From NCBI GenBank assembly GCA_023228925.1, contig JALOAF010000008.1, forward strand, positions 1 to 41,055: DNA of 41,055 nucleotides. Direction: 5' to 3'. Position numbers and translations under genes: made by a program. Below the pieces are notes generated by a model. The model ran no database searches. It was not told the DNA's origin and saw only the letters and a program-made list of their open reading frames with translations. This DNA is from Candidatus Absconditabacterales bacterium (GTDB lineage: Bacteria > Patescibacteriota > Gracilibacteria > Absconditabacterales > Absconditicoccaceae). Shown here one piece after another: positions 15,489 to 29,163 of the stretch. The number at the start of each line of letters is the position of its first letter. Position 1 is the stretch's first letter.

Positions 15489-16706
15489 ATGATCATATTA
15501 AAATTGATAGATAAAGTTTTAGCTAAATTTACAATTTTTTTGATAAGAATATATCAGTTTACAATATCACCAGACAAGTGACTGCCCTCTCTATGGCTAA
15601 AATGAAAAGTTTGCTCTCATAAACCTCATTGTAGTAATTACAGTATTAAGGTTTTAAAAAGATATTGATTTATTTCTTGAATTCCAAAAATGACAGAAAG
15701 AATTGTTGCGTGCACTCCATCAAAAGAAAAAACATATGATCCAGAATATTACAAAGTGGTGTTTTTTTCATGAGCACCAATATGAGTATCTTTTTTACAA
15801 GAGTTAAAAAATGATAAAAGATTTGATCTTGTTTGAATAGTTACAATGCCTGATGCTCCTAGTGGCAGATGAATGGAAGTAAGGGAAAATATCATAAAAA
15901 TTGAGGCCAAAAAAATTTTCAATAAAATATCCACAAAGGACGAATTTTTTCAAACTCCAAGCTCTCTTCGTTTGGATAGTAAAAAATATGGAAAAGAAGC
16001 ACAAAAGTTTCAACAATGGCTCATAGACAAAGATCCAGATTTTCTAGTAGTCATAGCTTACTGAAAAATAATACCCCAATATATTTTGGATATTCCAAAA
16101 ATTGCTCCAATCAATGTTCATGGATCACTACTTCCAAAATATCGTGGTGCTAGCCCTTTACAGTCCGTGTTTTTGAATAATGAAAAGAAAACTGGAATCA
16201 CTATTATGAAAATGGATGCCAATATGGATACAGGAAACATGATCGATATACTAAAGTTTGATATAGATTTTGATCGAAATGTAAAAGACCTTATAGACAA
16301 AATCCTTGTTAAATGACCAAAATTTTTAAACAATACTTTGCGAAATTTTGGGAAAAGACAGCTTTGAGAAGTAAAACAAAATGAAAATAAAGCAACTTAT
16401 TGTAATAAAATTGAGAAAGAAGATTGAGAAATAAATATTGAAAAAGATAGTTTAGAAAGCATTTACAATAAATATAGAGCATACTATCTATGGCCAAAAA
16501 TCTATTTTTTTGTATGAAATAACAATAAAACAAAAAGAGTTATTATAGAACACATGAAATTAGATAAAAAAATATTTGAAACAGAAAAAAAGAATAAGTT
16601 ATTCAAAGGGAATGAGCTGAATAAAGCTATACTAGAAATACAAATAAAACCAGAATGAAAAAAAATAATGGATCGAGAAAGCTTTAAAAGAGGATATTTA
16701 AAATAA
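15489..16706 (+). CDS. fmt: YidD-Fmt fusion (membrane insertion factor + methionyl-tRNA formyltransferase)
   Basis: A single 405-aa frame. Residues 1-88 match YidD, the small membrane-associated factor that aids YidC-dependent insertion: LIRIYQFTISP, C42-SHKPHC48-SNYS, RIVAC75 and DP84-85 are its conserved features in order. Residues 89-405 are a full-length methionyl-tRNA formyltransferase, which formylates initiator Met-tRNA: VVFFSGAPIGVSFL, N209-V-H211-GSLLPKYRGASP and MDTG with D247 give the catalytic Asn-His-Asp set. The join has no stop and no ATG before the Fmt domain; only GTG codons 90-91 could start a separate Fmt. Codons 263, 285 and 396 are CGA at places where Trp fits well. Both domains look intact. 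The fusion would tether formylation to the membrane (inference). Confidence 0.88.
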
Positions 16707-21394: not shown

Positions 21395-21422
21395 AGTATA
21401 AAAAAATTAAAACAAAAATCAA
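21395..21422 (-). promoter_or_regulatory. Probable promoter of the rpsL operon
   Basis: On the minus strand TTGATT (21417-21422) and TATACT (21395-21400) are 16 bp apart, upstream of the rpsL ATG at 21339. The overlapping TTGACTTGAT sequence closely resembles one upstream of the foreign gene block near 26900-26915. Confidence 0.5.
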
Positions 21423-21771
21423 GTCAATTTATAAAAAAAGTTTTTCTGTTAAATCAAAGTCTATTAGCTGTTTTAAACACAAGTATAACTTTTCATACCA
21501 CAAAAAAATAAAAAACATTTTATTTATTCAAAAACAAACAGCTTTCAAAATTTATAAAACTACTAATCCTTGTAGAACTACAAAAAATCCATTACACATA
21601 AATTGTTGTTCTAAATAGTCTGTCATTTCGAAGTGTTCTAGCTTGCGAGAAATCCCCTATAATACTATTAGATTTCTCCCAACAATTACAGTCGAAATGA
21701 CAAATCCGCAACAATAACAACTCGAGATAACATAATAAAACAATCTTCCTAGTTAATGTTTTTTCTACAAC
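21423..21771. repeat. Intergenic spacer with element B
   Basis: 21622-21701 is a complete 80-bp element B: GTCATTTCGAAG at one end and TCGAAATGAC at the other are complementary, as are inner arms AGAAATC and GATTTCT. The preceding 21585-21600 carries an AATCCATTACACATAA fragment also seen next to the B copy at 16880. The rest is AT-rich without a gene. This host-type repeat lies within about 130 bp of the end of the Bacteroidetes-like block. Confidence 0.75.
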
Positions 21772-21802
21772 AAAAAAAAAGTGCCAGTAAAAACCAGCAC
21801 TT
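21772..21802 (-). terminator. Rho-independent terminator of the 893-aa gene
   Basis: On the minus strand AAGTGCTGG and CTGGCACTT pair (with two G-U) around TTTTTA, followed by eight T. It starts 26 bp after the TGA stop of the 893-aa gene. If TGA were read as glycine the coding frame would run through this hairpin to a TAG at 21765. Confidence 0.8.
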
Positions 21803-21827
21803 TCTTTAAAATAGCATTATTCAGGTA

Positions 21828-24509
21828 TCATTGTTTCATAACCTTAAAAGGTTGTGAAACCTGTCCGTCTTGCATTACAAAACGAACAAAATACATACCT
21901 GGAGTAAATTCTGATACATCTATTGTAAGATGATCTGAATTTACTCTAATTTCGTATAATATTTTTCCCATAATATCAAAAATCTGACATTCAGATATTT
22001 CGACATTATCCAATGTGATATTTAAAATATCGCTCATTGGATTTGGGAAAACATTAACGATATCAATCAAAGATATATTGTCCACTCCTACTGGACCAAT
22101 GGTAATTTGCAAAGAAGCTGATTCTTCGCAATGTCCATTGCTATAAGAGTAAACAATATCGTACGTCCCCACTCCCCAGTAAGCTGGGTCAAAGAAAACG
22201 CCTGAAATCTGTCCATTAACAGTCAACTGTCCTCCAGGAGGAGAAACTTCTAACTGAAAAGGATCTGCATTTTCTTCAACATCTGTAGGACCAACTAAAG
22301 TCACTATAGGAGAAGAATGAACAACAATAATTACCTCATCATCACCTCCACACATAGCAGATGGTAATGAGTAAGTAATTGTGTGTTCTCCCTCTCCCCA
22401 GAAATCTGGGTCAAAGTTTGCACTAGATGATACTCCATCAACCATATAATAGCCACCACTAGGTGTAGCGCTCAAGTTGATTGGAGAATCTCCTGTACAC
22501 AATTCAGTAGCAGGGGATGAAATAACCACATTTACTGGAGCATTAACAACAATGTTATCAGATGCTATAGCTATACAACCATAAGGGTCTGTATAGGTAT
22601 ATAAAATCTGATGTGTTCCTGCACCAGCCAAAGCTGGATCAAACACATTGTTGTCTACTCCAGGACCACTATAAACACCACCCGTAGGTACGCCTCCAGT
22701 TAGCACAAATGGTGCATACTGGATACAAGTAGTACCAGTTGGTATGTTGAGAGTGGTAGTTGGTGGATGATGGACAGTTATCAACTCCACTACAGAATTA
22801 TAACATCCTGTAGTTGGATCAGTATAATGTGCCTTAATATCATAAGTACCTCCTACAGCAACTGTAGAAGGATAAAAAATATTACTAGCAACACCTACAC
22901 CCGTAAACCACACTTGCCCACCATTGTAAGGAGTTACTGTAGCCAAGGAGGTCAAGCTTATTGGCTCTCCATCACTACAGATATCATCCTGCAGATTAAA
23001 TGAAATAACTGGCATCGGATTAACAGGCACGAATACACTGTCAACATCCGAGCAACCAAACTCATTGGTCACAGTCACATAGTACCATGTAGGCGCTAAT
23101 GGATTGACAGTAATCTCAGGAGTTGTTGCTCCGGTTGACCACAAGTAAGAGTCACCACCCGATGCCAATAAGTTAACATCCGATCCACCACAAGATGATG
23201 AACCAGAAGTGATAATTGCATTTGCTACTGGTACTGGATCCTGTCCTACAGTAAAGTAGAACGGACTGCCAGTTGCATGGCAACCATTAGCATCTGTGAC
23301 TGTTAGAGCATAACCTCCCTGAGCAAGATTACTCACGGAAGAAGTAATCGCTCCAGTACTCCATTTGTAAGAATAAATTGGAGTACCTCCAGTCACAATT
23401 ACATTAGCAGACCCAAGAGGAGTCCCACTACAATGGATATTATCCACTGTAAGTGTAGCCACCAATTGAGTAGGCTGAGTAACTATAACTGAAGTAATGG
23501 CTTGACAACCATTGTCATCTGTAACTGTCACAGTATAAGTTCCAGCTCCCAATCCTGTAGCCATGGACGTAATCTGTCCATTGCTCCAAGAATAAGAATA
23601 CGGAGCGGTTCCTCCACTCACATTCACTGTCGCGGTACCGGTATTGCTACCAGCACACAAGACATTTGTATGTGAAGGTATAGTAGCTATCAATGGAGGA
23701 TCTATTGCCACAACTACTGATGTAGTAGCTGAACAGCCATTAGCATCAGTAACTGTTACAGTATAAGTTCCTGCTGACAACCCACTTACAGCTGATCCAG
23801 TATGATTACCAGACCAATTGTATGTGTAAGGAGTTGTTCCTCCAGTTGCATAAACCGTAGCAGAGCCACTATTGACTCCAGTACAGTTAACATTTGTGAC
23901 ATTTGCCACAGATAATTGCAACTGGACAGGTTCTCCAATAGTGGTGTCGTAAGATTTTTGACAGCCATTAGCATCAGTTACAGTAACTGAATGACTTCCT
24001 GCTGTCAAATAGTTGTTTATTGAAGTAGTTACTCCATTATCCCAATGATATGTGAATGGCATTGCACCAGTCTCAGGAACAATAGTTGCAGAACCATTAG
24101 CTTGACCAAAACACTGTGTCGAAGACACAGATGTAATGTTTGCTGATGGTAATTGATTCACTGTTACAATCCCTGCCCCAGAGGCCGTTCCGGAGCAATC
24201 TTGATTATTAACAGAAACCAATGTATACACTCTATTAGAATTAGGACTCACACTCAAATAATGAGGCGAATTCACTAATCCAATGAGGTTGTAGTTACTA
24301 ACACCGTCCGTATAGACTATGTCTACTGGACCGTGTGTGAACGAAATCGACAATTGTGCAGATCCACCTACACAAATTGTGGATTGTCCACTTATTGTTG
24401 CGGTTGGAGTTGCTTTCCAAGCTCCTCCAAGATCCACTTCTTCATTTTGTGCAAGCACAAATGAAAGTAGACCAACAATAAAGATGATAAATAATATTAA
24501 TTTTTTCAT
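21828..24509 (-). CDS. SprB-repeat surface protein with type IX secretion sorting domain
   Basis: An 893-aa protein of Bacteroidetes type. Residues 1-20 are a signal peptide. Residues about 125-420 hold four SprB-like repeats, each ending in variants of AGTYTVTVTDANGC with GGTxPYxYxWS in the middle. Residues about 430-800 are further immunoglobulin/PKD-like modules with GVYSGPGV and FDPAYWG motifs. Residues 807-893 are a type A C-terminal sorting domain (VFPNPMSDILNI, DIMGKILYE, FTPGMYFVRF). All glycines are GGN; no TGA is in frame, and the gene stops at TGA (21828-21830), which this host reads as Gly. The natural sorting-domain end PFKVMKQ fits that stop. G+C looks visibly higher than in the neighbours. 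Type IX machinery is not expected in this lineage, so the gene is foreign or the contig is chimeric. Confidence 0.9.
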   Translation of the reverse strand: MKKLILFIIFIVGLLSFVLAQNEEVDLGGAWKATPTATISGQSTICVGGSAQLSISFTHGPVDIVYTDGVSNYNLIGLVNSPHYLSVSPNSNRVYTLVSVNNQDCSGTASGAGIVTVNQLPSANITSVSSTQCFGQANGSATIVPETGAMPFTYHWDNGVTTSINNYLTAGSHSVTVTDANGCQKSYDTTIGEPVQLQLSVANVTNVNCTGVNSGSATVYATGGTTPYTYNWSGNHTGSAVSGLSAGTYTVTVTDANGCSATTSVVVAIDPPLIATIPSHTNVLCAGSNTGTATVNVSGGTAPYSYSWSNGQITSMATGLGAGTYTVTVTDDNGCQAITSVIVTQPTQLVATLTVDNIHCSGTPLGSANVIVTGGTPIYSYKWSTGAITSSVSNLAQGGYALTVTDANGCHATGSPFYFTVGQDPVPVANAIITSGSSSCGGSDVNLLASGGDSYLWSTGATTPEITVNPLAPTWYYVTVTNEFGCSDVDSVFVPVNPMPVISFNLQDDICSDGEPISLTSLATVTPYNGGQVWFTGVGVASNIFYPSTVAVGGTYDIKAHYTDPTTGCYNSVVELITVHHPPTTTLNIPTGTTCIQYAPFVLTGGVPTGGVYSGPGVDNNVFDPALAGAGTHQILYTYTDPYGCIAIASDNIVVNAPVNVVISSPATELCTGDSPINLSATPSGGYYMVDGVSSSANFDPDFWGEGEHTITYSLPSAMCGGDDEVIIVVHSSPIVTLVGPTDVEENADPFQLEVSPPGGQLTVNGQISGVFFDPAYWGVGTYDIVYSYSNGHCEESASLQITIGPVGVDNISLIDIVNVFPNPMSDILNITLDNVEISECQIFDIMGKILYEIRVNSDHLTIDVSEFTPGMYFVRFVMQDGQVSQPFKVMKQ

Positions 24510-24528
24510 ATTTTTTTTATTTTTTTTG

Positions 24529-25725
24529 TTAAGGTTCTATTACTGGAAAGTTTGAACAACCAGTTGTGGTTGAGACAATCCTTGTATGCACATTTTGTGT
24601 TCCATAAGGAATGTCAACATCAACATTTACTGGTCCTACACCAACAGGTAACTGTGGATTTGAAGAAACAATCTCATATTCAGTATCATGAGTTGGATTC
24701 CAAAACTCAACATTAAATGGTCCAGTGCCACTAAATCCTGAAACTTGCAATGTCATATATTCACCATTACAAGTACTAGATGGTATTGGAGTTACAGTTA
24801 AATCAGGCAGCTGATCAACTTGGATATTCAAAGTATTTGAGGTACCTTGACAACCATTGTTGTCAGTAACTATCACATAAGCACTCTGCCCATTCTGAGC
24901 CATTGAAACCGGCCATGAACGAGTAGGCGAAGCTACTGTTGTAGGAGTCTCTGCTATGAAAAATTGCCAAGAAGCAATGTTTGCATTACCACTTGTTTCA
25001 TTTATCACTGCAGTCTGAGCATCACAGAAATGATTCTGTAAATTCAAGTCGTCAAATGCAACAACCGGAGTTGGGTTATTGTACACCGTCATAGCAACAG
25101 CCTGAGCTGGTGGTAATATCGCTGAACAAGACCCATTGGAAACTGCAAAAGATATTGACTGTCCATGAGTAGGTGTATACTGGAAAATATTACTCGTTGG
25201 ATCAGAAACAACCACAGGTATTCCATTCACAGACCAAGTATAAGTTGAAGATCCTGGCAAAGCATTATCTGCTCCAGCCACAAAATCCACTTGAGTTCCA
25301 GCACATACCACACTTCCACCAGTAGCAACCAAACTTAAATTAGCTGGTGCTTCAAGCACAGAAACAAAAACAGTTGTGTCTCTAGGACAAGTAGGCATTC
25401 CAGGGTTTAAATTTATAGTAAACTCATAATTATTACCCACCAAAGACAAATCTGAAGTTGTAAAATTTATTGAATTACTATAGCCATTAGCCGTAACACC
25501 AGGATATGTACTAGAAATAGTCCAAGCATACGTACCATCCAGAGTTAAACTGAATGTTACTTGCTCTCCCACACACACTGATGTAGGAACATTATTGAAA
25601 CTTATCCAATCTGGTGTTTCAGCCCAATAACTAGACAAATTAATTTTACAATTGTCTGATTGAGCAAAAATGTTGCTATTTAACACAGTAACAGCAACTA
25701 CTAATAAAAAAACTAATTTTTTCAT
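24529..25725 (-). CDS. Bacteroidetes-like secreted immunoglobulin/PKD-type protein
   Basis: A 398-aa protein. Residues 1-21 are a signal peptide (MKKLVFLLVVAVTVLNSNIFA). The rest is a string of beta-sandwich modules with conserved cysteine pairs and phrases such as VVCAGTQVDF, VIVTDNNGCQGTSN and CNGEYMTLQVSGFSGTGPF, common in gliding-bacterium adhesins. The last ~95 residues are similar to the end of the next protein upstream (both reach TTGCSNF/TATGCSNF). It has no sorting domain. No in-frame TGA is present; the stop is TAA. It lies 19 bp upstream of the 893-aa gene and 44 bp downstream of the 287-aa gene, so the three probably form an operon. Confidence 0.85.
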   Translation of the reverse strand: MKKLVFLLVVAVTVLNSNIFAQSDNCKINLSSYWAETPDWISFNNVPTSVCVGEQVTFSLTLDGTYAWTISSTYPGVTANGYSNSINFTTSDLSLVGNNYEFTINLNPGMPTCPRDTTVFVSVLEAPANLSLVATGGSVVCAGTQVDFVAGADNALPGSSTYTWSVNGIPVVVSDPTSNIFQYTPTHGQSISFAVSNGSCSAILPPAQAVAMTVYNNPTPVVAFDDLNLQNHFCDAQTAVINETSGNANIASWQFFIAETPTTVASPTRSWPVSMAQNGQSAYVIVTDNNGCQGTSNTLNIQVDQLPDLTVTPIPSSTCNGEYMTLQVSGFSGTGPFNVEFWNPTHDTEYEIVSSNPQLPVGVGPVNVDVDIPYGTQNVHTRIVSTTTGCSNFPVIEP

Positions 25726-25769
25726 AATCTTTAATTTTAATTTTTGTTAATAATTTTAAATTTTGTACA

Positions 25770-26633
25770 TTAAAAATTAGAACAGCCAGTCGCTGTATCA
25801 ATAATTTTTAGATGCACTTCATTTGTCCCATATTCAATCGGGACAGTGAGCAATCCTCCTGAACTAGTGACAGAATAATCATCACCATACTGAACATTAT
25901 GTTCGGTGTTCCAAAAGGATAAAGTCCAAAAGCCACTTCCAGTTAACCCAGAATAAGTGAACTCCATATCATCCCCATAACAAGTAGGAGATGGAGTCAC
26001 TGATCCCAGATCAGGAATCTCATGGACTGTCATACTAATGGGCTCAGAAGTAGTTGAACAACCATTTTCACTAACCACAACAACAACTGTATCGTTATTG
26101 TTCAATAAGCTAGATGAAAATAAATTGGTCTCTCCTATCTGTTCCCTCACTCCATTAACTTTAAACTCATATATTGCTCCACCAGAGGCCAAAAAAGTCA
26201 CCTCTTCACCAGCACATATTGTACTGCTACTAGCAGACAACATAGCAGTTGGCAGATCAACTAAATGAATATCAAGGAATGCTTGTCTAATCCCACCACC
26301 TTGCATATACACAACCAACCAGTAACGATAATAATAATTACCAACAGGTAAAGTAGAAAATGGGGCACTTATTGTTAAGTCACCACCTCCAACTTGAGAA
26401 CTACTATACACAGGTCCAGACAAAGTAGACATAATCTGCTCAGTCCAAACCACACTCTCTATATTCCCGCCATCCAAATATGCCGTTAAATCAATATTTT
26501 GATTCTTACAAACATTTATTTTACAAGAAGTTGAAGGAGAGGAACAAGCATACTCGTTAATTCTAGCTGTTTGTGAAAAAGCAGAGAAATAAGATGACAC
26601 AAATAAAAATAAAAACAAAACTGCTTTCTTCAT
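25770..26633 (-). CDS. Bacteroidetes-like secreted protein, paralogue of the next gene
   Basis: A 287-aa protein from the ATG at 26633, chosen because it opens a proper signal peptide (MKKAVLFLFLFVSSYFSAFS). The frame stays open upstream to 26858, but that part does not look like a protein start. After the signal come beta-rich modules with CKINVCKNQNIDL, TICAGEEVTF and VVVSENGCSTTSEP, then a C-terminal module shared with the 398-aa protein (TCYGDDMEFTYSGLTGSGFW...TATGCSNF). It ends abruptly after that module. No in-frame TGA; stop TAA. Function unknown, probably adhesion-related. Confidence 0.8.
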   Translation of the reverse strand: MKKAVLFLFLFVSSYFSAFSQTARINEYACSSPSTSCKINVCKNQNIDLTAYLDGGNIESVVWTEQIMSTLSGPVYSSSQVGGGDLTISAPFSTLPVGNYYYRYWLVVYMQGGGIRQAFLDIHLVDLPTAMLSASSSTICAGEEVTFLASGGAIYEFKVNGVREQIGETNLFSSSLLNNNDTVVVVVSENGCSTTSEPISMTVHEIPDLGSVTPSPTCYGDDMEFTYSGLTGSGFWTLSFWNTEHNVQYGDDYSVTSSGGLLTVPIEYGTNEVHLKIIDTATGCSNF

Positions 26634-26948
26634 AACTTTTAAATTTTTTAGATTAATTTTTTTGCAATAAAACAAATAAACACCATTATAAATCTTCTCA
26701 TGACTTAACAAAAAGATCTTGAGATTTTTATATATTGGTGGAGCATTTATTCTTTTCCCAAAAAAATCAATCAGGTTAGACAATAGATTTTTCATAATTT
26801 TTTCTTCTTTGATTGATTTTAACGAACTTCCAACTCCTAGGCGTTGGATACCTAACAAACCATAATATATGATTTATTACATAAATTTTAGGTATTTAAA
26901 AACAAAAGTCAAGTCATTTTACAAAAAAAACAACACTTTTAGTAAATA
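26634..26948. other. Leader of the foreign block with an 18-bp palindrome
   Basis: The spacer lies upstream of the 287-aa gene. 26830-26847 is CCAACtCCTAGGcGTTGG, an inverted repeat with one mismatched pair, about 200 bp before the gene. Around 26900-26915 the minus strand reads TGACTTGACTTTTGTTTT, much like the rpsL promoter region, so a host-type promoter may serve the block. The open frame in 26634-26858 (75 codons) has no TGA but no protein-like character. Confidence 0.5.
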
Positions 26949-26975
26949 CAAAAAAGCCCAGCATTTTGCCAGACT
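26949..26975 (-). terminator. Terminator after the second SLH protein gene
   Basis: On the minus strand AGTCTGGCA and TGCTGGGCT pair (including G-U pairs) around AAA, followed by TTTTT. It is about 110 bp beyond the stop of the gene at 27085 and would isolate that gene from the Bacteroidetes-like block. Confidence 0.6.
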
Positions 26976-26979
26976 TTTT

Positions 26980-27084
26980 CAGTGTACAGTTTACAATATT
27001 CAGTACACAGTTTACAATATTCAGTGCACAGTTTACAATATATAGTTTACTTGCAACTTGCAACTTGTAACTTTCAACTTTCAA
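26980..27084. repeat. Compound tandem repeat: 3 x 21 bp, then 5 x 7 bp
   Basis: 26980-27042 is three copies of a 21-bp unit (CAGTnnACAGTTTACAATAT plus one base). 27049-27083 is five heptamers ACTTGCA/ACTTTCA. The last partial heptamer overlaps the TAG stop of the SLH protein gene. Both arrays are non-coding. Confidence 0.85.
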
Positions 27085-28515
27085 CTATTTTACCAACTTA
27101 GTATGTGATCTATTTAACATCAACATCACCCAACCTCTAAGCTCATAATCCCAAGGTTGAGATATTTTTTTCATAATTTCAACTGAATTTAATGCTTCCA
27201 AATGATAATTGTAAAATGGATCTCATCCATTGTAATAATCTCATCGTATAGCTCTAGACAAAACAGTACCAAATTGAGCTCTAGTCACTACCCCAGTAGG
27301 ATCAAAACTAGATTTTGGGATTCATTTATTGTCCACCCCCATCAGTCACATTTGACATGATTGGATTATAAAAGCATACAAATCTTGTCATTTTAGATAA
27401 TCTATATCATCAAAATCACAAACAATACCAGTGTTGGCTTTTACTCCAAGAACTTTCTTTGACCATTGAACCATCATCTTTGCCATATGAGATCTAATTA
27501 ATTTTCACTCTAGATCTGCTTTAAAAATATTTGGCATAGTAGTAATTCACATATTATATGCATATAGATACGCTAAATTCAATTCTTGACTATAAGGAGA
27601 ATTTGATATATCTCATATTTTAGTATAATCTACAGGATTCAATCCTGCCCCAGTAGCCGTATTTCCTGTAGTTATCACTACACCTGTACCACTACAAGTA
27701 TTTCATAAGTTTCAATTTATACAATTTACTCCAGGTTTTTTTTGATAAGTACCACCTACACACATCAAATCTACAAAAGTACAAGTAGGTGTAGATGATC
27801 CACCTCATCATCCACCTCATCATCCACTAGGAGTAGGAAAACAAATGTCATATTGTACACGTCAAGTATCCTCGCTCCAAAGTCAATTATTACATTGTAT
27901 CGAATTTAATGTACAAGAACCAGAAGGTACAGAATAACCCGTCTTGTTAAATCCGCTTGTATAAGAAATTCATCATAAACTACAACTTGATGATGGCAAT
28001 CATCCAGAAAGAGTACATCAAGTATATATATACCCATTATCTATTGAATTAGATAAATTTACAGACCAAGAAGAGTTACAAGATATAGTTTTCTGTTCAC
28101 AAAGTCATGTTGTAGTCTTATATAATTGCATACTAAGTCAAGAATTAATAGTTTTTCAAGAATAAGTACAAGATGATGGATTTGACGCTGGATAACAAGG
28201 TTCATAAGGATTTATTGGCGAACCATTACAACTACAACCTAAACCACCTCATGGACAATACTCAAAATCATTACAAATAAAAACGCCTGTACTCCACTCA
28301 TTAGAACACAAATTTCAACAAAAATCTCCAGGCAAAAATTCTCATCAATCAAGAATTGTACAAGAACAAGCATCAGCAGTAAAAGGGCATTGTTGTCAAA
28401 TTTCACATGAATATAAATTTGGCGCCACTGGCGAACAACTACTTTGAGCATTAACAAAAGAAATAACACCCATAGCAAGTACCAAAACAGACAATATTAA
28501 TTTTAAATTTTTCAT
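27085..28515 (-). CDS. Secreted Cys-rich protein with C-terminal SLH-like domains
   Basis: A 476-aa protein. Residues 1-24 are a signal peptide ending VNAQ. Residues 25-225 carry many cysteines in short beta modules (FTADACSCTI, GDFCGNLCSN, YCPGGLGCSCNG). A poly-glycine linker (about residues 228-240) is written with mixed GGN and TGA codons. A small Cys module follows (TCTFVDLMCVGGTYQKKPGVNC). Residues about 305-476 are SLH-like and align by eye with the end of the 766-aa protein at 1828 (AYLYAYNMGITTMPN, CQMGLMG, FDPTGVVTRAQFGTVLSRA, final MLMLNRSHT). An S-layer or cell-wall-attached role is inferred. It has its own promoter and terminator. Confidence 0.8.
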
Positions 28516-28550
28516 CGGCATTTAAAAAAAATCTAAATAAAATTGAACAT

Positions 28551-28578
28551 AGGATATATTTTTATACACAAATGTCAA
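28551..28578 (-). promoter_or_regulatory. Probable sigma-70-type promoter of the second SLH gene
   Basis: On the minus strand TTGACA (28573-28578, perfect -35) and TATCCT (28551-28556) are 16 bp apart, 35 bp upstream of the ATG at 28515. Confidence 0.6.
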
Positions 28579-28600
28579 GCTAAAATACAAAAAAACAAAA

Positions 28601-28627
28601 AACCTAGTCATTAGCTAGGTTTTTTTA
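28601..28627. terminator. Bidirectional terminator hairpin
   Basis: AACCTAG (28601-28607) pairs perfectly with CTAGGTT (28615-28621) around a 7-nt loop. T-runs follow on both strands. It lies downstream of the minus-strand gene at 29164 and just upstream of the promoter at 28551-28578. Confidence 0.7.
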
Positions 28628-29163
28628 ACACACAACTCAATCTAAAACAAAGTGTCATTCTTACATATTATCATTTTTAGTATCATAGACTCAACATTAT
28701 CATTCTAAGGGCCATTGTTGCACATTGTCATTCTGAACAAATGCATTGTCATTCTGAGCAAAGCGAAGAATCCATTTGCAGTATCCTTGTAGTAATCCAC
28801 TTTCTATGAATGGATATTTCGCCCTATGGGCTCAATATGACCAACTTCTTGTCATTCTGAACAACTTGTTATTTTGATTATTTTATCTTGCAAGAAATCT
28901 TCACTACTGTCATTTCGATTGCCTCGAAAAGACTTCGATGGATTGTTCTATCTTGCGAGAAATCTTCCTGTAATGCTATTAGATTTCTCCCAACAATAAC
29001 AGTCGAAATGACAGAAGAACATCGTCATTCTGAGCGTAGCGAAGAATCCATTTGCAGTATCCTTTCATTTAAACAACCCTCTTTCAGCCAATGGATATTC
29101 CATCCTTACAGGCTCAATATGACACAGCACCGTCTTTCCATTCAAAACAACCAAAAACAACAA
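28628..29163. repeat. Intergenic array of palindromic elements A, B, A
   Basis: 28748-28841 is element A, 28909-29012 is element B (a longer version with extra inner sequence), and 29024-29123 is a second element A. Each begins GTCAT and ends ATGAC with complementary inner arms (GAATCCATT / AATGGATATTC in A; AGAAATC / GATTTCT in B). Partial copies precede them near 28725. A 109-codon open frame through this stretch is repeat-derived. No gene is seen. Confidence 0.8.

What the first reader, a model, noticed from the sequence alone, without database searches (positions are those of the whole stretch)
21828..26633. Standard-code Bacteroidetes-type operon with a type IX sorting domain inside a code-25 genome
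Three consecutive genes (893, 398 and 287 aa) carry gliding-bacterium features: signal peptides, SprB repeats and, in one, a C-terminal sorting domain. None of their codons is TGA although they are rich in glycine, whereas flanking genes write roughly half of their glycines as TGA. G+C also looks higher. The surrounding DNA is host-type on both sides (element B at 21622, the SLH gene at 27085). Such a block would be a very recent inter-phylum transfer, perhaps from a prey or host cell, or else a contig chimera. If real, the host exports large adhesins whose sorting domain it cannot use.
Basis: partly seen in the sequence, partly recalled or inferred. Interest (0 to 1): 0.82.

Follow-up and report, generated by a model that had tools for sequence, protein, structure and literature searches.

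The report
Standard-code genes kept in recoded bacterium
Bacteria that read the stop codon TGA as glycine keep, at fixed places in their chromosomes, surface-protein genes that almost never contain TGA and look written for another bacterial phylum, as if they had to stay readable in a cell that uses the ordinary genetic code.

Summary
The block is real: three genes, 0 of 145 glycines written TGA, in a code-25 contig. The last gene ends in TGA, so the host's own code would add 21 residues behind its type IX (T9SS) sorting domain. A chimera is very unlikely and, as a class, these genes are not recent arrivals. The site beside rpsL carries TGA-free sorting-domain genes in 4 of 8 relatives found through S7. 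Among relatives, 32 of 33 sorting-domain genes in TGA-using surroundings have no TGA, about 1715 glycines with 554 TGA expected. At three syntenic loci they stay TGA-free although synonymous sites are near saturation. In one genome the TGA-free class shares adenine-rich starts resembling Bacteroidota and non-native codon use. SprA was not found in 118 relatives, but in 8 of 8 Bacteroidota controls. So these genomes hold a stable second, standard-code dialect. Best explanation: selection keeps the genes readable by standard-code, Bacteroidota-type ribosomes, perhaps in the host or prey cell. That step is inference (about 0.38) and no vehicle is known. Main rival: repeated import from a Bacteroidota gene pool (0.36).

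The parts
21828..24509 (-). gene 1 (P0001), 893 aa: signal-like N-terminus, SprB repeats, C-terminal Por_Secre_tail; 0 of 93 Gly as TGA; stop codon TGA at 21828-21830
21765..21827 (-). stretch that code 25 would read through after the TGA stop (product 914 aa)
   Evidence: protein listed as P0034, sequence
21772..21803 (-). terminator-like hairpin with T-run just behind the TGA stop
   Evidence: read by eye in the sequence
24529..25725 (-). gene 2 (P0002), 398 aa, TAA stop, 0 of 26 Gly as TGA; C-terminal part related to gene 3
25770..26633 (-). gene 3 (P0003), 287 aa, TAA stop, 0 of 26 Gly as TGA
26634..26795 (-). in-frame leader ORF (MKNLLSNLIDFFGKRINAPP...), present ahead of 9 of 12 aligned database relatives of gene 3
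26793..26874 (-). weak full-length match to Rfam RF02980 (freshwater-2), below the gathering score: possible leader RNA
   Evidence: 26.5 bits against 49.9
26885..26912 (-). sigma70-like promoter, by eye: TTGACT, 16 nt, TAAAAT
   Evidence: sequence; same layout in L003
26899..26929 (-). 31 nt that match the rpsL promoter region 21409-21439 (28 of 31)
   Evidence: 0 of 400 dinucleotide shuffles reach the score
20923..21339 (-). rpsL (S12), native, 6 of 12 Gly as TGA: marks the conserved site
21519..29163 (.). segment absent at this site in the close relative L001 (block plus native SLH-type gene and repeats)
27085..28521 (-). native code-25 gene (478 aa, 28 of 60 Gly as TGA); C-terminal ~170 aa found many times in relatives

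Best explanation
Shown: the block belongs to a gene class that code-25 Gracilibacteria/Absconditabacteria-type genomes keep in a second dialect: almost never TGA, adenine-rich starts, non-native codon choice, T9SS cargo signals. At three syntenic loci in other genomes the TGA-free state has lasted until synonymous sites were near saturation. Inferred: selection keeps these genes readable by standard-code, Bacteroidota-type ribosomes because their products are made, at least partly, in the Bacteroidota cell on which the bacterium lives. There the T9SS can export and anchor the adhesins (and, in one genome, a PorP/SprF barrel), and a TGA stop ends the protein correctly. The likely route is transcription in the small cell and passage of message or DNA during attachment or predation; no vehicle is identified.
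For: TGA: 32 of 33 sorting-domain genes in TGA-using surroundings have none up to the end of the sorting domain; about 1715 glycine codons in those 32, 554 TGA expected. Long residence: G003/G430 orthologues (69% identity, fourfold-site difference 0.58): 58 aligned glycines, 37 with a changed codon, none involves TGA; the 7 syntenic neighbours: 44 of 54 involve TGA. rpsL-site trio, 4 of 6 genome pairs computed: 0 of 536 against 134 of 265 in the ~750-aa neighbour. Third locus, 6 pairs of 4 genomes: 0 of 105 against 185 of 329 in its ~490-aa neighbour. Orthology is locus-specific: normalised similarity 0.20-0.68 within a locus, 0.04-0.07 between loci, also inside one genome. Bimodality: in 771 kb of G003 32 of 484 genes with 10 or more Gly have zero TGA, none lies above 0 and below 10%, 5 between 10 and 30%. 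Starts: A at -12/-11 in 81/78% and at -3 in 72% of those 32, against T-rich starts in 491 TGA-using genes (p 1.3e-13); adenines near -12 and at -3 are reported for F. johnsoniae (PMC6847099, passages). Codon use without Gly: five T9SS/outer-membrane-type genes lie 0.281 from native, maximum of 300 equal-sized native subsets 0.156. Expression does not explain it in G003: S12, S7 and the two genes in the place of L19 and L25 use TGA for 26 of 43 Gly. SprA_N 0 of 118 against 8 of 8 Bacteroidota. PorP/SprF between a PD40 and an SprB-type gene, TGA-free, in single-contig G424. The window's gene 1 and one other (L146) stop at TGA just behind the sorting domain.
Against: No delivery route is known or was found. 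Promoters look sigma70-like and are conserved at two of the three loci (not evident at the trio), so transcription seems native; the Bacteroidota word TAnnTTTG occurs in 4 of 26 upstream regions (shuffled 18%), the two-part Bacteroidota motif in 2 of 26 (shuffled 1.9%), a sigma70-like pair in 3 of 26 (shuffled 5%): too few to decide. TGA is tolerated in some copies: L141 has 3 of 30, and 6 of 91 sorting-domain places hold TGA in the matched stretch. The codon use of the T9SS-type genes is still nearer native (0.281) than one Bacteroidota sample (0.342), and starts in three Bacteroidota pieces are less A-rich (A .32-.46) than in the class (A .57-.65). The TGA-free class of G003 also holds genes with no obvious surface role (purB, purC, prs, thyA, PhoH) that fit ordinary transfer. 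TGA stops are rare in G003 (1 of 34), so native reading may matter too; in G424 the same screen gave 13 of 41, but is blurred by fragments of TGA-using genes. The window's own copy has no long-residence test; gene 2's family is nearly absent from 118 relatives. All data are sequences, mostly from metagenome assemblies.
Confidence: 0.38

Rival explanations
1. Recurrent import: a Bacteroidota gene pool keeps overwriting these loci (predation plus DNA uptake), so every copy is young in its present genome and still wears the donor dialect.
For: Explains TGA absence, starts and codon use together. Database relatives of genes 2 and 3 share nearly identical segments next to divergent ones, as in lively recombination. 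Other TGA-free genes in G003 look like ordinary acquisitions. G442's copy at locus 3 is far more divergent (33-36%) than its neighbours. Proteins with the repeats of the trio's middle gene are common in Bacteroidota: 55 of 257 genomes, best E 5.5e-54 over 344 of 491 positions.
Against: Locus-specific orthology with no mixing between loci; conserved sequence including a promoter directly in front at two loci; TGA stops in only one of the 33 genes plus the window. The best Bacteroidota matches to the trio's middle gene lie in much longer frames (1335-3765 aa), not in stand-alone genes.
Confidence: 0.36
2. Native use with special translational needs: the genes are read only in the small cell, but strong expression or accuracy demands exclude TGA and favour adenine-rich starts.
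For: In G424 genes that I recognise by sequence as EF-Tu (0 of 37), enolase (0 of 40) and pyruvate phosphate dikinase (1 of 76) also avoid TGA; promoters look native; TGA stops are rare in the class.
Against: In G003 four ribosomal-locus genes use TGA for 26 of 43 Gly while three sorting-domain genes use none. Six hand-picked TGA-poor genes of G424 have starts with A .43/T .43, though two of the six are A-rich. Other very long surface-type genes use TGA freely (53 of 135 and 68 of 163 in the window). A TGA stop behind the sorting domain makes no sense for native reading.
Confidence: 0.13
3. Single very recent transfer from a Bacteroidota prey or host into this genome.
For: 0 of 145 TGA, TGA stop, absent from L001; gene 2's family rang weakly in only 1 of 118 relatives.
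Against: Same site carries the class in 4 of 8 relatives found through S7; L003's gene is homologous to part of gene 1; the class is old elsewhere; the upstream sequence matches the host's rpsL promoter region.
Confidence: 0.11
4. Contig chimera or bin contamination.
For: No read data were available; 7 of the 40 fetched regions had to be set aside for too few or TGA-poor flanking glycines.
Against: Both flanks are syntenic neighbours in L001; the same arrangement recurs in other assemblies, and the class sits in a 1.18-Mb single contig.
Confidence: 0.02

Closest known systems
Type IX secretion system (T9SS) type-A cargo of Bacteroidota (Por_Secre_tail, SprB repeats)
   Same: Domain content, C-terminal position of the sorting domain, adenine-rich starts
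   Different: Encoded in a code-25 CPR chromosome whose relatives show no SprA; promoter looks native
Code-11-compatible phages of Gracilibacteria and Absconditabacteria (PMC10746230, passages read)
   Same: No in-frame TGA although the presumed host is code 25; authors suggest a wider host range as the reason
   Different: Here chromosomal, syntenic surface-protein genes rather than phage genomes; that paper reports prophages of these hosts rich in in-frame TGA
Agrobacterium T-DNA (recalled)
   Same: Genes carried by one organism in the idiom of the cell that will express them
   Different: No transfer apparatus or border sequence identified here; promoter looks native to the carrier; expression in the host not shown
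Hypervariable gene of a gracilibacterium (PMC6851277, passages read)
   Same: Variable locus in the same wider group
   Different: A proline-threonine repeat gene; no standard-code dialect in the passages read

Membership tests
T9SS type-A cargo | Por_Secre_tail sorting domain at the C-terminus | tested here: met
   Gene 1 residues 820-884 of 893, 63.5 bits, cut-off 27; at the very C-terminus only if TGA is a stop
T9SS type-A cargo | T9SS translocon in the encoding cell | tested here: not met
   SprA_N 0 of 118 relatives, 8 of 8 Bacteroidota controls; other T9SS components not searched; the window's own genome is not held
T9SS type-A cargo | Sec signal peptide | tested here: inconclusive
   MKK-type hydrophobic N-termini read by eye; no predictor run
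Recent horizontal transfer | Absent from the same site in relatives | tested here: inconclusive
   Absent in L001; TGA-free sorting-domain gene present in L003 and in 4 of 8 relatives found through S7
Recent horizontal transfer | Little synonymous divergence among resident copies | tested here: not met
   Fourfold-site difference 0.52-0.76 at three loci of other genomes; not testable for the window copy
Code-25 (TGA = Gly) genome | TGA at conserved glycines in core genes | tested here: met
   S12 6 of 12, S7 4 of 7 Gly as TGA; S7 read with code 25 is 94% identical to L001
Rfam RF02980 freshwater-2 RNA | Score above the gathering threshold | tested here: not met
   26.5 bits against 49.9
Contig chimera | Coverage break or discordant pairs at the edges | not testable with these tools
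   No reads held
Host-directed (cross-code) genes | Translation in a standard-code cell | not testable with these tools
   Needs localisation or expression data

The most novel reading that the evidence does not exclude
Recoded episymbiotic or predatory CPR bacteria carry genes written for another phylum's translation and secretion machinery and have them expressed in the Bacteroidota host cell, so that the host itself makes and displays the symbiont's adhesins: a bacterium-to-bacterium counterpart of T-DNA, possibly at the level of messenger RNA because the promoters look native.
Probability: 0.25. Interest if true: 0.98.

Novelty: categorically new. Interest (0 to 1): 0.9.

Why it matters
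A reassigned codon should spread through every resident gene. Here a discrete class resists it for as long as synonymous sites take to approach saturation, and keeps its own starts and codon use as well. That would be a natural record of which genes must be readable outside their own cell, and would make an open question (what do CPR episymbionts do to their hosts, and which hosts) testable from sequence: search recoded genomes for TGA-free genes and read the partner from their dialect. Even if the rival of repeated import is right, it points to Bacteroidota as partners of these bacteria and shows a standing gene flow across a code boundary that has been speculated to isolate them (PMC8080830, passages).

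Tried and rejected
Donor search: the 398-aa protein has 19 database relatives besides itself, 17 of them at 42-79% identity over 95-100% of its length, from the sources lgn, ena and jgi, none with a name. None in IMG/VR, no plasmid DNA match; its profile gave only partial matches in 34 of 395 Bacteroidota genomes, and the 893-aa relative P0044 only partial matches in 142 of 390. RF02980 rang in 0 of 395 Bacteroidota, but also in none of the 14 controls, so that search shows nothing. Bacteroidota promoter motif: no clear enrichment. The rpsL-type promoter word as a genome-wide signature: 3-7 hits in each of six code-25 genomes but also 14 in one of four Bacteroidota, so not specific. High expression as the cause of TGA avoidance: fits some G424 housekeeping genes, fails in G003. 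Bin contamination: regions with TGA-poor or too few flanking glycines were set aside before counting (7 of 40). Literature: no paper of the open-access library holds Gracilibacteria together with type IX secretion, or Absconditabacteria together with sorting domain; other searches. Subscription papers are not covered.

Caps and gaps: no whole genome for the window; the metagenome collection was not open to me; no reads. Of the 80 S7 loci only the nine best (68-94% identity; the tenth has 48%) were used as relatives. The rpsL-site script found no S12 ORF in L006 and G424; both were left out. Only 40 of the 91 sorting-domain places were fetched with surroundings. L139, a fifth copy related to locus 3, was left out of the six-pair count; its four comparisons also show no TGA (0 of 85). 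The Bacteroidota control for starts is 39 ORFs, for codon use one 20-kb piece. The odds of the best explanation and of the novel case were lowered slightly, and that of the import rival raised, after a recheck showed the codon-use, promoter and Bacteroidota-homologue evidence to be weaker than first written.
Full report
1. In the 41,055-base window the three longest table-11 ORFs are the block. They write 0 of 145 glycines as TGA; 20 flanking genes write 36-83%. The 893-aa protein has SprB repeats and a Por_Secre_tail domain; the other two have no Pfam family. A leader ORF, present ahead of 9 of 12 aligned relatives of the 287-aa gene, and a sub-threshold match to the freshwater-2 RNA precede the operon.

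2. It is in place. The closest genome found through S7, L001 (94% S7 identity), is collinear with the window on both sides of the block. Positions 21518 and 29164 of the window are 67 bp apart in L001, so 21519-29163, including a native TGA-using gene, is absent there. A chimera would have to return to the same locus. The sequence just upstream of the operon matches the rpsL promoter region at 28 of 31 positions; 0 of 400 dinucleotide shuffles reach that score. By eye it contains TTGACT-16-TAAAAT.

3. It is not alone. A search of 118 relatives of L001's genome found sorting domains in 39, 37 over the cut-off, at 91 places, and SprB repeats in 14, 7 over the cut-off. I fetched 40 of those 91 places with their surroundings. 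After setting aside 7 with too few or TGA-poor flanking glycines, 32 of 33 sorting-domain genes hold no TGA up to the end of the domain: about 1715 glycine codons, 554 TGA expected at each region's own rate (one of the 1715, in L146, is the TGA just behind the domain). The exception, L141, has 3 of 30. In the whole list of 91 places 6 have TGA inside the matched stretch. So avoidance is very strong but not absolute. Gene 2's own family is a different matter: its profile rang in 1 of 118 relatives, weakly.

4. The site upstream of rpsL is a home of the class. Of the nine best S7 matches (of 80), eight hold an S12 ORF (L006 does not), and four of these eight have a TGA-free sorting-domain gene next to rpsL: L002 0 of 33, L003 0 of 36, L005 0 of 70, L008 0 of 81. 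Four further genomes, fetched because they have sorting domains (L151, L163, L165, L176), show the same; in L151 and L163 a small ORF lies between.

5. It is old there. Fourfold-degenerate sites of syntenic orthologues differ at 0.52-0.76; neighbouring genes give 0.33-0.71 and a non-homologous control 0.64 (39 sites), so synonymous sites are near saturation. Yet no aligned glycine involves TGA: 0 of 58 for the 704/706-aa pair of G003 and G430, whose seven syntenic neighbours have 44 of 54; 0 of 536 for the trio in 4 of the 6 possible genome pairs, against 134 of 265 in the ~750-aa gene next to it; 0 of 105 for a third locus in 6 pairs, against 185 of 329 in its neighbour. Orthology is locus-specific: normalised scores 0.20-0.68 within a locus, 0.04-0.07 between loci, also within one genome. 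At two of the three loci a sigma70-like promoter directly in front is conserved (TTGACTTTT...TATACT in L139, L148 and L156, with variants in L149 and L153; TTGACTTTT...TATAAA in L142 and L157); none is evident upstream of the trio.

6. It is a whole dialect. In 771 kb of G003, where TGA writes 67% of glycines, 32 of 484 genes with 10 or more glycines have zero TGA, none lies above 0 and below 10%, five between 10 and 30%. The 32 TGA-free genes start with adenine-rich regions (A at -12 and -11 in 81 and 78%, at -3 in 72%, T at -1 in 59%), while the 491 TGA-using genes are T-rich (p 1.3e-13). Across 34 of the 40 regions the contrast is the same (42 TGA-free starts A .58/T .24, 239 TGA-using starts A .34/T .45). 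A small Bacteroidota sample shows a similar pattern with less adenine (39 ORFs from three 20-kb pieces: A at -11 in 69%, T at -3 in only 10%, T at -1 in 49%; overall A .32-.46). Adenines near -12 and at -3 are reported for Flavobacterium johnsoniae (PMC6847099, passages). Codon use without glycine differs from native (0.281 against at most 0.156 in 300 native subsets) and is shared by the two TGA-free groups (0.124); against one Bacteroidota piece the T9SS-type genes score 0.342 and native genes 0.521, so the class lies between the two and is still nearer native. The window block has such starts (A .64/T .25 over four starts; 16 native genes .43/.40). In the single-contig genome G424 the class includes a PorP/SprF gene between a PD40-repeat gene and an 852-aa SprB-type gene.

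7. What it may be for. Expression level does not explain it in G003: S12, S7 and the two genes in the place of L19 and L25 use TGA for 26 of 43 glycines. In G424 some housekeeping genes do avoid TGA. SprA_N, a marker of the T9SS translocon, is found in none of 118 relatives but in 8 of 8 Bacteroidota. A sorting domain, a SprF barrel, adenine-rich starts and a TGA stop behind the domain make sense in a Bacteroidota cell and not in the carrier. I therefore think it most likely that these genes are selected to be read by Bacteroidota-type, standard-code ribosomes, in the host or prey. Moderate correlation of Absconditabacteria with Bacteroidetes in mats has been reported (PMC8406219, passages). 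The native-looking promoters suggest that transcription is in the small cell, so a message or DNA must pass; that step is inference and no carrier was looked for. The chief rival is repeated overwriting from a Bacteroidota pool, which locus-specific orthology makes harder but does not exclude; the repeats of the trio's middle gene are common in Bacteroidota, though in longer proteins (55 of 257 genomes). The non-surface TGA-free genes of G003 (purB, purC, prs, thyA, PhoH) may be ordinary acquisitions, though of the 6 TGA-free G003 genes with a reciprocal best hit in G424, 5 have 0 or 1 TGA there too, against 8 of 270 background partners with zero.

8. Known or new. Phages without in-frame TGA that are targeted by code-25 bacteria are known (PMC10746230, passages). 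I found no open-access paper on such chromosomal genes (subscription journals not covered). What is shown here is a stable standard-code dialect inside recoded chromosomes; what is not shown is where it is translated.

Noticed in passing
window 24529-25725 (P0002), 25770-26858 (P0023): Database relatives share stretches nearly identical to the window next to strongly divergent stretches (for example the C-terminal ~90 aa of P0023, P0024, P0025 and P0027): mosaic, recombination-like variation.
   Followed up: partly
P0002 entry: The identical 398-aa protein is listed on a contig of 56,493 bases while the other two block proteins are listed on one of 41,055: perhaps a second assembly of this locus.
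   Followed up: no
G003 C1:23010-37100 and G424 883382-889270: A shared cluster of TGA-poor genes (PP2C, radical SAM, two unknown families) in both genomes; the G003 copy at C1:26897 has a standard-code frame that ends in TGA.
   Followed up: partly
window 15489-16706: YidD and methionyl-tRNA formyltransferase domains in one code-25 ORF: a fusion or overlapping genes.
   Followed up: no
window 1565, 4315, 16841, 28732, 29008 and 4363, 16896, 21621, 28931: Two families of short intergenic repeats that lie on both sides of the variable segment and elsewhere in the window.
   Followed up: partly
window 27085-28521, C-terminal ~170 aa: A conserved C-terminal domain without a Pfam hit at E 0.001, with matches in 32 of 59 relatives and up to 27 places in one genome; presumably the native surface anchor.
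   Followed up: no
L142:9680-12709 (G003): A 1009-aa UPF0182 membrane protein gene with 0 of 57 Gly as TGA right behind a sorting-domain gene.
   Followed up: no
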